NCBI GenBank assembly: GCA_944326705.1
Contig: CALVEY010000003.1
Span: 1 to 64,000, forward strand
Source: an uncultured Mucispirillum sp.
GTDB taxonomy: Bacteria; Chrysiogenota; Deferribacteres; Deferribacterales; Mucispirillaceae
DNA: 64,000 bases
Direction of reading: 5' to 3'
Under the pieces are notes generated by a model, which was not told where the DNA came from, ran no database searches, and worked only from the letters and a program-made list of their open reading frames with translations. Position 1 is the stretch's first letter, and every line of letters starts with the position of its first letter. Positions 30,619 to 34,489 of the stretch are shown here, piece by piece. The position numbers were made by a program, and so were the translations under genes.

Positions 30619-30775
30619 AATGTAACCTTTTTTGTAATCTTTTTACTCTATCATACTATGATGAAAAATCAATCATTTTATTTAATACCTATACTGCGAC
30701 AACATATATCGTATAAAATTTTTTATACTAATCTATCAGTATGTTATTCAGCCGCAAAAAATTTATACTTGAATG

Positions 30776-30960
30776 AAAGAAATTTTTCTGATAAAAAATA
30801 ATCAGAGATAAGCGGAAGCAGGTGAGATGCCTGCACTGCCCCCGCAACTGTATGCTAGACAAAGCCCATTATGCCACTGATATTCGGGAAGGCGGGTAGA
30901 GGTTGAAAGCAAGTCAGGATATGCTTACTCAATTTATTCTTCGGAGGGAAGCCCATGAGA
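30776..30960 (+). promoter_or_regulatory. Cobalamin (AdoCbl) riboswitch upstream of nrdBA
   Basis: The segment contains the conserved elements in order: GCAGGTGAGATGCCTGCACTGCCCCCGCAACTG-like P3-P6 core (30810-30852), GCCACTG then CGGGAAGGCG (30873-30896), and the B12 box AGTCAGGATATG (30912-30923). It reads on the plus strand toward nrdB. When cobalamin is plentiful, expression of the class Ia reductase would be turned off. Confidence 0.93.
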
Positions 30961-31006
30961 TACAATTCTATTTAACATTCTTTTTTACACCACATACATA
31001 CTCTTG

Positions 31007-31090
31007 ACTAACCAGACAGCAAAATATTTTTGCGTGCATTGACCTCGCTCGTATATATTATATTCATAAGTCTGCCTGGTTAGTTTTTCT
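31007..31090 (+). terminator. Riboswitch-controlled terminator before nrdB
   Basis: ACTAACCAGACAG (31007-31019) pairs with CTGCCTGGTTAGT (31072-31084), leaving one mismatch, and is followed by TTTTTCTT. The loop is unusually long, about 52 bases. Its position between the riboswitch and nrdB (start 31126) suggests transcription-level control. Confidence 0.75.
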
Positions 31091-31125
31091 TATTTAGTAC
31101 CAATATGTTATAAGGAAGTATTTTT

Positions 31126-32208
31126 ATGAGCAGTCATATATTAGATATTTCTTTCAAAGTAGAGAAAGAAAAAATATTTTTTGGCGATTTTGGCCATTAT
31201 ATCCGCATAGATAATGTAACACATGAAATTGCAAGAAAATTAAAAGAAGCAAGCGAAGGTAATACATGGTTTACAAAGGAAATAGATTATAAATCTGACA
31301 AAGTCCGTTTCCAAAGCCTGCCGGAAAATGCAAAGCGGGCATTTAAACTAAATATTGCATACCAGACATTAATGGACAGCGGTGTTACAAGCGGACTTAG
31401 TTTTGTGATGAGCAGAGTTGTAACAAGCTCTATATGGAGCCTTTTATATGCAAGGATAGCTATAGAAGAAGCAATACATGCAGAATCTTATTCTTACGGT
31501 TTATCAGAAGTATTTGGTCATGAAGCAGCTGAAACTTTAGATTTAGTGTATAATGATAACTTTGTAAAAAGACGCATGGAAAAAGAATGTATGCTTTTTG
31601 ATAATGTGTCTGCTTTATGTTTATCTGATGATACATCTGTTAATCTCGATGATAAAAAGAAAGCACTTTTAAGCCTGCTTTTAGGTATATATTACTTAGA
31701 AGGCATAAAATTCCCTTTTTCATTTTTAGTTACTTTCATAATAAATAACAGCTACAATGACGCCATTACTGGCTTTACTAAAACTATAAAGCTGATAGCC
31801 CATGATGAACTTTCTGTCCATGTGGTAACTGGCAAAAATATATTAAATATTTTAGCTCGTGATGAAAATGAAGGCTTTAAGCATCTTTTTGATAACGGAT
31901 TTTTTAGAGAAACTGCATTAAATTTAGCAGAAGAAGTAGTTACTCAGGAAATAATGTGGGCAAAATATCTTTTTGATGATTATGAAGTTGCAGGCATAAA
32001 CAGCCAGATATCAGAAAATTTCATTAAATACTGGGCAAATATCCGTTTAAAAGATATAGGCATCATAGATAACCCATATATGAAAGAAGAAAAGACAGAT
32101 ATTATTGACTGGTTTAATAACTACAGAAATATTAACAAGCAGAATGCTGCTTTACAGGAAACATCAAACACATCATACCAAAAAGGTGTCTTGAAAAACG
32201 ATTTATAG
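31126..32208 (+). CDS. nrdB: Ribonucleotide reductase class Ia, beta subunit (NrdB/R2)
   Basis: R2 carries the diiron-tyrosyl radical that starts ribonucleotide reduction in R1. In the 360 residues the metal ligands and radical tyrosine are visible at the same numbers as in E. coli: Asp84 (TLMDSG), Glu115 and His118 (IEEAIHAE), and Tyr122 (AESYSY). Later ligands are Glu192 (YLEGIKFPF), Glu228 and His232 (AHDELSVHV). The last pair is spaced E-x3-H, where most R2 proteins have E-x2-H, an odd one-residue insertion. nrdA follows after 7 bases. Control is by the upstream cobalamin riboswitch. Confidence 0.93.
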   Translation: MSSHILDISFKVEKEKIFFGDFGHYIRIDNVTHEIARKLKEASEGNTWFTKEIDYKSDKVRFQSLPENAKRAFKLNIAYQTLMDSGVTSGLSFVMSRVVTSSIWSLLYARIAIEEAIHAESYSYGLSEVFGHEAAETLDLVYNDNFVKRRMEKECMLFDNVSALCLSDDTSVNLDDKKKALLSLLLGIYYLEGIKFPFSFLVTFIINNSYNDAITGFTKTIKLIAHDELSVHVVTGKNILNILARDENEGFKHLFDNGFFRETALNLAEEVVTQEIMWAKYLFDDYEVAGINSQISENFIKYWANIRLKDIGIIDNPYMKEEKTDIIDWFNNYRNINKQNAALQETSNTSYQKGVLKNDL

Positions 32209-32215
32209 GTGTAAA

Positions 32216-34489
32216 ATGGTAATACTTACAGAAGGTAAAAAACATATAATAATAAAACGCGATGGCAGAGAAGAACCATATAACGAAGAAAAACTTAGGA
32301 AAGTTACAAGCTGGGCAGCAGGCGGTAAAAGTGCATTTACTGATAAATTATTAAAAGATTTAAATATTAAAATAAATAATAAAATGAAAATCACAGATTT
32401 ATATGATGCTCTTATTACTACAGCAGTAAATAATATAAGCCCACTTTATACAGAATATGATGAGATAGCAGAAAAGCTTTATTTAATGAAAATATATAAA
32501 GAAACTTACGGGCTTAAAAAAACAGGTCAGTATCCCCATTTAAGTATAGTGCTTACCCGTGGAGTAAAAGCAGGTATTTACTCTAAAGAATTTATAAACT
32601 CTTTCTCTCATAAAGAAATAGATTTATTAAATGATATGATAGTGCCGGACAGAGATTTTTTATTTACATATAAGGCATTAAATACATTTTTTACAAAATA
32701 CTGCAAAACTATAAAAAATAAAAAACTGGAGCTGCCGCAGATTACTTATATGATAGCTTCTATGTTTTCATTTTATAATGATGATAAAAAGAAAAGAATG
32801 CAGTTTATAAAAGAAACTTATGATATGCTGAGCACCCATAAAATAACATTTGCAACACCCCGTATTATGAACAGCGGTTACAGAAATCCACAGCTTGCAT
32901 CATGTGTATTAAATACGCCAGATGATGATACATGGAGCTTAAACCAGACAGACGGAAATATTGCTCTTTATTCAAAATTTTCTGGCGGTATTGCTTATGA
33001 TGTATCTCATATTCGTTCATCTGGCTCAAAAATAGCTTCCTTTAATGGCATATCTGATGGCCCTGTGCCGTTTATTAAAAGATTAGAGCAGACTGTTTCT
33101 GCATTTAACCAACAGAGCAAAAGAAAAGGCTCATGTGTTGTTACTTTCCCTTTCTGGCATTATGATGTGCAGGATATGGTAATGTTAAAAGATGCTGGAG
33201 GCACAGAAGATACAAGAGCTAGAAAATTAATGTATTCTATCCGCATACATAATATTTTTAAAGAAAGAGTTGAGCAGGATGCAGATATTACTTTATTTGA
33301 CCCAAAAGATACACCCCTTTTAAACTGCACTTACGGTAAAGAATTTGAAAAAGCATACATAGAATACGAAACAAAGCCAGGTATCCGCAAAAAAACAGTA
33401 AAAGCAAAAGATTTACTTTATCTTATATTAAAAGTGCGCACAGAAAGCGGCAACCTGTATTTTACTTTTGTAGATAATATTAATGAGCAGTCAGTATTGA
33501 ATACCTTTATTGGTGCATCTAACTTATGCACAGAAGTGCTTGTGCCATCAAGTGCCTCATCTTTAAAAAGTGAAGAATTATATTTAAACAGTCATGGAGA
33601 ATATGAAATACACCAGATACGAAAAAGCGGAGAAATTGGTATATGTAACCTGTGCTCTATAAACTTAGTATCCTGGGATAAAATGACATTAAAAGAAAAA
33701 ACAGAATTCTCTTACACTCTTTTAAGGGGCTGCGATAATATTATAGATACACAGTTTTATCCAGTAAAAGAAGCGCAGGCATCAAACTTAAAAAACAGAC
33801 CTATAGGTATAGGCGTATTAAACTATGCAAACTTAATGGCATCTAAAAAAATCAAGTTTACAGATGAAGCTGCAAAAGAATTTACAAATACTTTATTTGA
33901 TGACTTATACTATCACTTATATTCTGCTGCCTGCACTTTAGCAAAAGAAAGAGGGGCATACCCAGCATTTAAAAACTCAAAATGGAGTTTAGGCAAAACA
34001 CCTTTTCATCTTTCTTCATTTGATTATAAAAAATTTAACTTATCAATAGATAAAAAGAAATGGGACAGGTTAGCTGATGATATTAAAACATTTGGCATAA
34101 GGTTTTCTTATGTGGCAGCAATAGCACCAACAGCAACAAGTGGAAAAAGTATATCAGCAACAGAATCTATTGAACCAGTTATGGACTTATTTTATATGGA
34201 AGAAGGTCTGCAGAATATTCCTACTCTTGTGGCAAATATTAAAGAAAACAGACTTTATTATGAAAGATGCTGGGATATTCCTGCAAAAACTATTATTGAG
34301 CTTGCAGCTATCAGGCAGAAATATATTGACCAGTCACAGTCTGTAACTCTTTATTACACAAAACCAGAATCTGCTAAAATACTATGGGAAGATATAAAAT
34401 ATGCTATGGAACTTGGTCTTAAAACTCTTTATTATATGAAAACACCTAAGTATAATTTTACAGAAGAAGTATGCGAAAGTTGTTCATAA
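32216..34489 (+). CDS. nrdA: Ribonucleotide reductase class Ia, alpha subunit (NrdA/R1)
   Basis: R1 reduces ribonucleoside diphosphates. The 757-residue product has an N-terminal ATP cone (about residues 8-95, IIKRDGREEPYNEEKLRKV), the substrate Cys in NPQLASCVLNTP, and the active-site motif NLCTEV with its Cys and Glu. The partner region GICNLCSINLVSW holds another conserved Cys stretch. The protein ends in CESCS, a CxxC pair that would accept electrons from thioredoxin or glutaredoxin. The ATP cone suggests dATP-controlled overall activity. It forms an operon with nrdB. Confidence 0.95.
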   Translation: MVILTEGKKHIIIKRDGREEPYNEEKLRKVTSWAAGGKSAFTDKLLKDLNIKINNKMKITDLYDALITTAVNNISPLYTEYDEIAEKLYLMKIYKETYGLKKTGQYPHLSIVLTRGVKAGIYSKEFINSFSHKEIDLLNDMIVPDRDFLFTYKALNTFFTKYCKTIKNKKLELPQITYMIASMFSFYNDDKKKRMQFIKETYDMLSTHKITFATPRIMNSGYRNPQLASCVLNTPDDDTWSLNQTDGNIALYSKFSGGIAYDVSHIRSSGSKIASFNGISDGPVPFIKRLEQTVSAFNQQSKRKGSCVVTFPFWHYDVQDMVMLKDAGGTEDTRARKLMYSIRIHNIFKERVEQDADITLFDPKDTPLLNCTYGKEFEKAYIEYETKPGIRKKTVKAKDLLYLILKVRTESGNLYFTFVDNINEQSVLNTFIGASNLCTEVLVPSSASSLKSEELYLNSHGEYEIHQIRKSGEIGICNLCSINLVSWDKMTLKEKTEFSYTLLRGCDNIIDTQFYPVKEAQASNLKNRPIGIGVLNYANLMASKKIKFTDEAAKEFTNTLFDDLYYHLYSAACTLAKERGAYPAFKNSKWSLGKTPFHLSSFDYKKFNLSIDKKKWDRLADDIKTFGIRFSYVAAIAPTATSGKSISATESIEPVMDLFYMEEGLQNIPTLVANIKENRLYYERCWDIPAKTIIELAAIRQKYIDQSQSVTLYYTKPESAKILWEDIKYAMELGLKTLYYMKTPKYNFTEEVCESCS

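What the first reader, a model, noticed from the sequence alone, without database searches (positions are those of the whole stretch)
30776..34489. Cobalamin riboswitch controlling a class Ia ribonucleotide reductase
The riboswitch and a T-tailed stem before nrdB imply that nrdBA is shut off when adenosylcobalamin is present. This is established logic in bacteria that also have a B12-dependent class II reductase. It predicts such an enzyme elsewhere in this genome and a switch between oxygen- and B12-dependent DNA precursor synthesis in an anaerobe.
Basis: partly seen in the sequence, partly recalled or inferred. Interest (0 to 1): 0.5.

Follow-up and report, generated by a model that had tools for sequence, protein, structure and literature searches.

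The report
B12 riboswitch controlling a DNA-precursor enzyme
A gut bacterium appears to use a vitamin B12 sensor in its messenger RNA to switch off an oxygen-requiring enzyme for making DNA building blocks when its B12-requiring counterpart can do the job; the logic is known from other bacteria, but here the sensor seems to act through a tiny six-codon gene, and the enzyme genes appear to have been acquired from elsewhere.

Summary
An RF00174 cobalamin riboswitch (81.5 bits) lies at 30764-30942, before nrdB-nrdA (31126-34489). The logic is the known Streptomyces nrdABS logic, so the core is a new case of a known kind.

Three things are added. (1) The loop just after the aptamer carries GGAGG. 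In the genus' btuB (8/8) and cbiM (7/7) riboswitches this is the ribosome-binding site of the gene itself. In all 10 nrdB-type leaders it instead precedes a six-codon upstream ORF, followed by a G-poor spacer and a covarying hairpin, T-tailed in most. B12 therefore probably gates uORF translation, and so termination before nrdBA (inferred). (2) nrdBA is absent from 40 other genomes of the phylum. Its nearest relatives are in Brachyspira, then certain phages. The riboswitch is in 9 of 9 Mucispirillum nrdBA loci and 0 of 16 others. (3) One Mucispirillum genome has lost nrdBA but kept the whole leader as an orphan.

B12 response, uORF translation and termination are untested.

The parts
30764..30942 (+). 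cobalamin riboswitch aptamer (RF00174)
   Evidence: cmscan 81.5 bits, model 1-189 of 189; same place by whole-genome search
30836..30846 (+). putative L5 (CUGCCCCCGCA), expected partner of L13
   Evidence: position; the name L5 and the pairing are inferred/recalled
30939..30951 (+). P13/L13-like hairpin CUUC-GGAGG-GAAG directly after the aptamer
   Evidence: stretch invariant in 9 of 9 nrdB leaders of alignment A1 and present in the orphan
30943..30947 (+). GGAGG: Shine-Dalgarno site of the uORF inside the L13 loop
   Evidence: the equivalent GGAGG is the gene's own ribosome-binding site in btuB (8 of 8) and cbiM (7 of 7) riboswitches
30955..30975 (+). six-codon uORF ATG AGA TAC AAT TCT ATT TAA (MRYNSI)
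   Evidence: start + 5 codons + TAA in 10 of 10 leaders; translation not shown
30976..31006 (+). G-poor, C-containing spacer (9 C, 1 G of 31), rut-like
   Evidence: 65 C to 4 G summed over 10 leaders; Rho action inferred
31006..31084 (+). covarying platform hairpin with invariant apical loop AYUGACCUC (31038-31046)
   Evidence: motif TGCAYTGACCTCGCTYG occurs once in the genome
31084..31091 (+). T-run after the hairpin
   Evidence: sequence; clear in most of the 10 leaders, absent in L014, short in L016/L017
31112..31118 (+). ribosome-binding site of nrdB (AAGGAAG)
31126..32208 (+). nrdB, class I RNR small subunit; E-x3-H metal motif at 31807-31821
   Evidence: PF00268 101 bits over cut-off; motif
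32216..34489 (+). nrdA, class I RNR large subunit with ATP cone
   Evidence: TIGR02506 492 bits (cut-off 341); PF02867, PF00317, PF03477 over cut-off

Best explanation
The leader is a class I-type cobalamin OFF riboswitch on nrdBA, the oxygen-dependent partner of the genome's B12-dependent NrdJ. When adenosylcobalamin is plentiful, the aptamer closes (L5 pairing with L13) and hides the GGAGG in the L13 loop. That GGAGG is the ribosome-binding site of a six-codon uORF. With the uORF untranslated, transcription ends in the leader: Rho could load on the G-poor spacer, and/or the covarying T-tailed hairpin acts as terminator. When B12 is scarce, the uORF is translated, termination is avoided and nrdBA is made. 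Shown from sequence: riboswitch, operon, nrdJ, conserved uORF geometry, covarying hairpin. Inferred: B12 binding, uORF translation, its coupling to termination, and use of nrdBA when B12 runs short. The OFF switch on nrdBA alone, without the uORF part, I would put at about 0.9.
For: Riboswitch 81.5 bits. It lies before nrdB in 9 of 9 Mucispirillum genomes that have nrdB (window plus 8). NrdJ is present and NrdD absent. No NrdR was found that could regulate the genes otherwise. The other three riboswitches in the genome serve btuB, an RCC1 lipoprotein and the cbi operon. GGAGG is the gene's own ribosome-binding site in 8 of 8 btuB and 7 of 7 cbiM leaders, but precedes a six-codon uORF in 10 of 10 nrdB-type leaders and an 18-19-codon uORF in 8 of 8 RCC1 leaders. 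uORF start and stop columns vary in 1 of 6, internal columns in 13 of 15, Fisher p 0.0055, rows not independent. A six-codon ORF there arises in 0.4 to 1.8% of shuffles per leader. Hairpin covariation. Published precedents: Streptomyces nrdABS (passages) and M. tuberculosis ppe2, whose expression needs translation of a riboswitch-controlled uORF (abstract and passages).
Against: No expression, binding or ribosome data. The uORF stop lies about 31 nt before the hairpin, so a ribosome at the stop codon should not reach it directly; the coupling must go through Rho or something else, and I did not check that the genome encodes Rho. The uORF peptide itself is not conserved. The longer RCC1 uORF shows 30 non-synonymous against 2 synonymous codon differences, so only its frame and place could matter. 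In M. tuberculosis the metE uORF suppresses its gene, the opposite sign to ppe2 (abstract). GGAGG is constrained anyway if it is L13. The T-run is missing in one of 10 leaders (L014) and short in two. What the invariant apical loop does is unknown.
Confidence: 0.58

Rival explanations
1. Plain transcription attenuation: the B12-bound aptamer favours the T-tailed intrinsic terminator and the free form an antiterminator. The short ORF is an unused by-product of the SD-like L13.
For: Covarying hairpin, z -2.99, T-run in most leaders. The published Streptomyces nrdABS case is transcriptional.
Against: By eye I found no conserved antiterminator partner for the 5' arm. L014 lacks the T-run. Start, frame and TAA of the uORF are kept in 10 of 10 leaders although the distance from GGAGG to the start changes from 7 to 10-11 nt.
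Confidence: 0.27
2. Translational control of nrdB itself: the hairpin or apical loop shields the nrdB ribosome-binding site when B12 is bound.
For: The hairpin ends about 28 nt before the nrdB ribosome-binding site. btuB and cbiM riboswitches in the same genus are of the direct translational type.
Against: The nrdB site AAGGAAG lies outside the conserved hairpin, and I saw no conserved complement to it. The GGAGG of L13 is about 180 nt upstream of nrdB.
Confidence: 0.08
3. The leader responds to another cobamide form or is no longer functional for nrdBA; the structure is kept for another role, for example as a small RNA, as the orphan copy in G006 might suggest.
For: G006 keeps the leader intact without nrdBA. 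The apical loop is invariant for no known reason.
Against: The leader sits before nrdB in 9 of 9 genomes with nrdB. The orphan is 82 to 90% identical to its five nearest relatives, which fits a recent deletion.
Confidence: 0.07

Closest known systems
Streptomyces coelicolor nrdABS cobalamin riboswitch (Borovok 2006; title seen in reference lists, paper not held)
   Same: Class Ia nrdAB under a B12 riboswitch in a genome with class II nrdJ; OFF logic proposed (passages).
   Different: Actinobacterium with nrdA-nrdB-nrdS order. Here nrdB-nrdA, a phage-like NrdB branch, a six-codon uORF on the L13 site, and a mucus-associated Deferribacterota genus.
Mycobacterium tuberculosis ppe2 B12 riboswitch with uORF (PMC11260477; abstract and passages)
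   Same: The uORF ribosome-binding site sits in the hairpin that carries L13; expression of the gene depends on uORF translation.
   Different: Proposed class IIb variant; the uORF overlaps ppe2 and works mainly by termination-reinitiation. Here the aptamer fits RF00174 end to end, and the uORF is six codons long and ends about 150 nt before nrdB.
M. tuberculosis pe20 Mbox with uORF and Rho-dependent termination (PMC12810186; abstract)
   Same: Riboswitch directly controls a small uORF, with Rho-dependent termination.
   Different: Magnesium ligand. Rho is only inferred here.
NrdAB of Yersinia phage YerA41 and Cobetia phage Carin-5
   Same: NrdB 46% and 50.6% identical over 99-100% of the query; same E-x3-H insertion.
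   Different: Phage-encoded. I did not search these phage stretches for riboswitches.

Membership tests
Cobalamin riboswitch (RF00174) | aptamer sequence and structure over the curated threshold | tested here: met
   81.5 bits against 31.5, full model length
Cobalamin riboswitch (RF00174) | L5-L13 kissing loop | tested here: inconclusive
   CCCCCG and CGGAGG can pair at 5 of 6 positions with one A-C mismatch (read from the sequence; positions); both sides invariant in the nrdB leaders, so no covariation test
Cobalamin riboswitch (RF00174) | binds a cobamide and changes expression | not testable with these tools
   needs in-line probing or a reporter
B12-riboswitch control of a class I RNR beside a class II RNR (Streptomyces type) | class II NrdJ in the same genome | tested here: met
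B12-riboswitch control of a class I RNR beside a class II RNR (Streptomyces type) | B12 represses nrdAB transcription | not testable with these tools
   experiment needed
Class Ia RNR | NrdA with ATP cone, all-alpha and barrel domains | tested here: met
Class Ia RNR | NrdB tyrosine and first metal ligands (D84, E115, H118, Y122, E192) | tested here: met
   aligned with solved R2 chains and Vibrio/Klebsiella NrdB; invariant in 24 rows; which residues are ligands is recalled
Class Ia RNR | E-x2-H spacing of the last two metal ligands | tested here: not met
   E-x3-H in the window, in 24 of 24 loci and in 2 of 4 phages read; whether metal binding differs is open
Class Ia RNR | curated NCBIfam NrdB equivalog score | tested here: not met
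   best 137.7 bits (cut-off 310) and 137.6 (cut-off 346)
Riboswitch-gated uORF (ppe2 type) | conserved uORF whose ribosome-binding site lies in the L13 hairpin | tested here: met
   10 of 10 leaders
Riboswitch-gated uORF (ppe2 type) | uORF is translated and needed for the downstream gene | not testable with these tools
   needs reporter mutants

The most novel reading that the evidence does not exclude
In the ancestor of Mucispirillum a horizontally acquired, phage-like nrdBA pair came under a copy of a cobalamin riboswitch related to the one on an RCC1-repeat lipoprotein. Unlike the direct-type riboswitches on btuB and cbiM, this lineage acts through a uORF: B12 gates a six-codon ORF whose translation decides whether transcription runs on into nrdBA. 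One descendant has since dropped nrdBA, relies on B12-dependent NrdJ alone, and kept the sensor as an orphan RNA.
Probability: 0.42. Interest if true: 0.62.

Novelty: new variant of a known kind. Interest (0 to 1): 0.48.

Why it matters
It makes the choice between a B12-dependent and an oxygen-dependent route to DNA precursors testable in a genus that lives in gut mucus, where both oxygen and B12 may fluctuate. It offers a natural comparison within one genome: two riboswitches that act directly on a gene's ribosome-binding site, and a related pair that precede a uORF. It would extend riboswitch-gated uORFs beyond mycobacteria (searches listed no B12 case outside them). It also documents an RNR shared between phyla and fitted with a host regulator, and a species that lost the backup.

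Tried and rejected
NrdR control: no NrdR in 6 of 6 genomes searched, though 9 of 14 control genomes ring; the NrdR-box idea was dropped. Viral contigs: no relative of NrdB. Plasmids: only distant NrdB (best row listed 30.5%).

Pairing of the invariant apical loop with aptamer GAGGUU (8 pairs with wobbles in the window clade) fails in the L015-L018 clade, where the stretch reads GAGGAU, so it was dropped. Pairing with L13 (GAGG with CCUC, four pairs) cannot be tested because both sides are invariant. I looked by eye for an antiterminator partner of the 5' arm and found none conserved.

Structure of NrdB: mean pLDDT 61.9 and under 50 at 208-230, next to the insertion, so it says nothing about the metal site; not searched further. 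The promoter scan is at chance level. G006 cannot be named from its handle.
Full report
WHAT IS THERE. The window belongs to a Mucispirillum genome (G000, 2.39 Mb, 79 contigs, 96.87% complete; the genus is judged from the named relatives). RF00174 hits 30764-30942 with 81.5 bits. nrdB (360 aa) and nrdA (757 aa) follow 7 nt apart. NrdA has the ATP cone, all-alpha and barrel domains. The genome has four RF00174 elements: before btuB, divergently before an RCC1-repeat lipoprotein, before cbiM and the anaerobic corrin-ring genes (cbiD, L, F, G, H and J by their models), and before nrdB.

THE PREDICTED PARTNER ENZYME. NrdJ is on contig 7 and passes curated cut-offs; none of the four riboswitches lies on that contig. 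NrdD was not found by TIGR02487 or PF13597, nor NrdR by TIGR00244. So nrdBA is the only B12-independent RNR found in this genome. Within the genus nrdJ was found in 8 of 10 genomes; the two misses are 57% and 75% complete.

THE LEADER. Just after the aptamer comes CUUC-GGAGG-GAAG (30939-30951). I read all 34 RF00174 elements of the 10 Mucispirillum genomes. In 8 of 8 btuB and 7 of 7 cbiM leaders GGAGG is the ribosome-binding site of the gene itself; two btuB genes start with GTG, first misread by the script and settled. In 10 of 10 nrdB-type leaders it precedes a start codon (8 ATG, 2 GTG), five more codons and TAA. In 8 of 8 RCC1 leaders it precedes an 18-19-codon ORF. One further element (L046, before a second RCC1-like gene 361 nt away) has a 13-codon ORF. 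For the nrdB uORF, 1 of 6 start/stop columns varies against 13 of 15 internal columns (Fisher p 0.0055; the rows are related, so this overstates). Shuffles give exactly six codons in 0.4 to 1.8% per leader. The peptide is not conserved. For the RCC1 uORF, same-length comparisons show 30 non-synonymous and 2 synonymous codon differences, so what is kept there is the frame and place, not the peptide.

After the uORF comes a spacer of 26-31 nt with 65 C and 4 G over 10 leaders, then a hairpin. RNAalifold and the pair count agree on 20 pairs: 95% of cells paired, 8 pairs with a change on both sides. Four of the five measures are reached by none of 500 shuffles, while the number of further pair types is reached by 97 of 500; slid versions are 28 to 38% paired. 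The apical loop AYUGACCUC is invariant apart from one Y, and the longer motif occurs once in the genome. Of the 114 loci then held, 28 contain TGACCTCGC, all of them stretches with an nrdB-type leader, several being copies of the same place. A T-run follows in most leaders; L014 lacks it and L016/L017 have four T.

MECHANISM. I infer that bound B12 closes L5 on L13 and hides GGAGG. In btuB and cbiM that would stop translation of the gene; in the nrdB leader it would stop translation of the uORF. Because the uORF ends about 31 nt before the hairpin and about 150 nt before nrdB, reinitiation is unlikely, and I favour an effect on termination: Rho on the G-poor spacer, with or without the hairpin. 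The M. tuberculosis ppe2 switch (PMC11260477, abstract and passages) and the pe20 Mbox (PMC12810186, abstract) show that such gating exists. I did not test that Rho is encoded.

HISTORY OF THE GENES. NrdB of this type is in 9 of 10 Mucispirillum genomes and 0 of 40 other genomes of the same family, order, class or phylum; 2 of 9 genomes from elsewhere in the domain give distant hits at 24-25% identity. Outside the genus the nearest are Brachyspira at 71-74% and one MAG labelled proteobacterium at 64%, then phages Carin-5 (50.6%) and YerA41/GN1 (46%). In the NrdB tree (31 rows) the nine Mucispirillum form one clade (100/100) beside Brachyspira, with the two phages next; some other joins carry long-branch warnings. 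The direction of transfer is not settled. Riboswitch upstream: 8 of 8 other Mucispirillum loci and 0 of 16 others, of which 13 hold at least 350 readable bases upstream. Aptamers of the nrdB and RCC1 types group together apart from btuB and cbiM (100/98; 99.8/99 without the P13 stretch), so the nrdB riboswitch probably arose by copying within this lineage.

LOSS IN ONE GENOME. G006 (one contig, 98% complete) has no nrdB and only NrdJ among PF02867 matches. Between the same neighbours as in the window it keeps the aptamer, the uORF (GTG start), the spacer, the hairpin and the T-run, then about 400 nt of other sequence before the phospholipase D-like gene. Its leader is 89.5% identical to the window's. 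NrdJ places G006 inside the genus (12 rows; 87/92 for its five-row group), so loss is the simpler reading. I cannot name G006.

NRDB. The metal motif that reads D-E-A-L-H or D-E-S-L-H in the Klebsiella and Vibrio NrdB reads D-E-L-S-V-H here: one residue more between the last two ligands. It is so in 24 of 24 loci and in phages Carin-5 and YerA41, but not in Va1 or PC14. The other ligands and the tyrosine are kept. The structure model is too poor there to interpret.

LITERATURE. B12-riboswitch control of nrdAB beside nrdJ is established in Streptomyces (PMC4991794 and PMC5962746, passages). Isozymes of B12-dependent enzymes are a recognised group of cobalamin riboswitch targets (PMC3766115, passages). 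In the M. schaedleri genome paper (PMC5285517, passages) the searched terms for RNR, B12 and riboswitch do not occur. Searches for Mucispirillum or Brachyspira with ribonucleotide reductase gave 5 and 4 papers; judged from the listings (titles and starts of abstracts) none treats this point.

Noticed in passing
L009 9254-10927 (+), G000:C23: A lipoprotein with RCC1 repeats (PF25390 170 bits, PF00415 111 bits) lies under a cobalamin riboswitch, divergent from btuB; full-length in 8 of 10 Mucispirillum genomes. It could be a surface B12-binding beta-propeller, an analogue of Bacteroides BtuG (recalled).
   Followed up: partly
window 31807-31821: NrdB has E-x3-H instead of E-x2-H in its last metal-binding motif, shared with Brachyspira and phages YerA41 and Carin-5.
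   Followed up: partly
L062 1494-1830: Orphan nrdB-type cobalamin riboswitch leader in G006, where nrdBA has been lost; the space holds about 400 nt of other sequence.
   Followed up: partly
Brachyspira genomes behind L019, L022, L024, L030, L033: No NrdD (two models) and no NrdJ over cut-off in 5 of 5, so this NrdAB may be the sole RNR of these anaerobes.
   Followed up: partly
window 31038-31046: Invariant apical loop AYUGACCUC of the platform hairpin has no explained role; it resembles an anti-Shine-Dalgarno stretch.
   Followed up: partly
L046 (G007:C40): Extra cobalamin riboswitch with a 13-codon uORF, 361 nt before a second RCC1-like protein gene.
   Followed up: no
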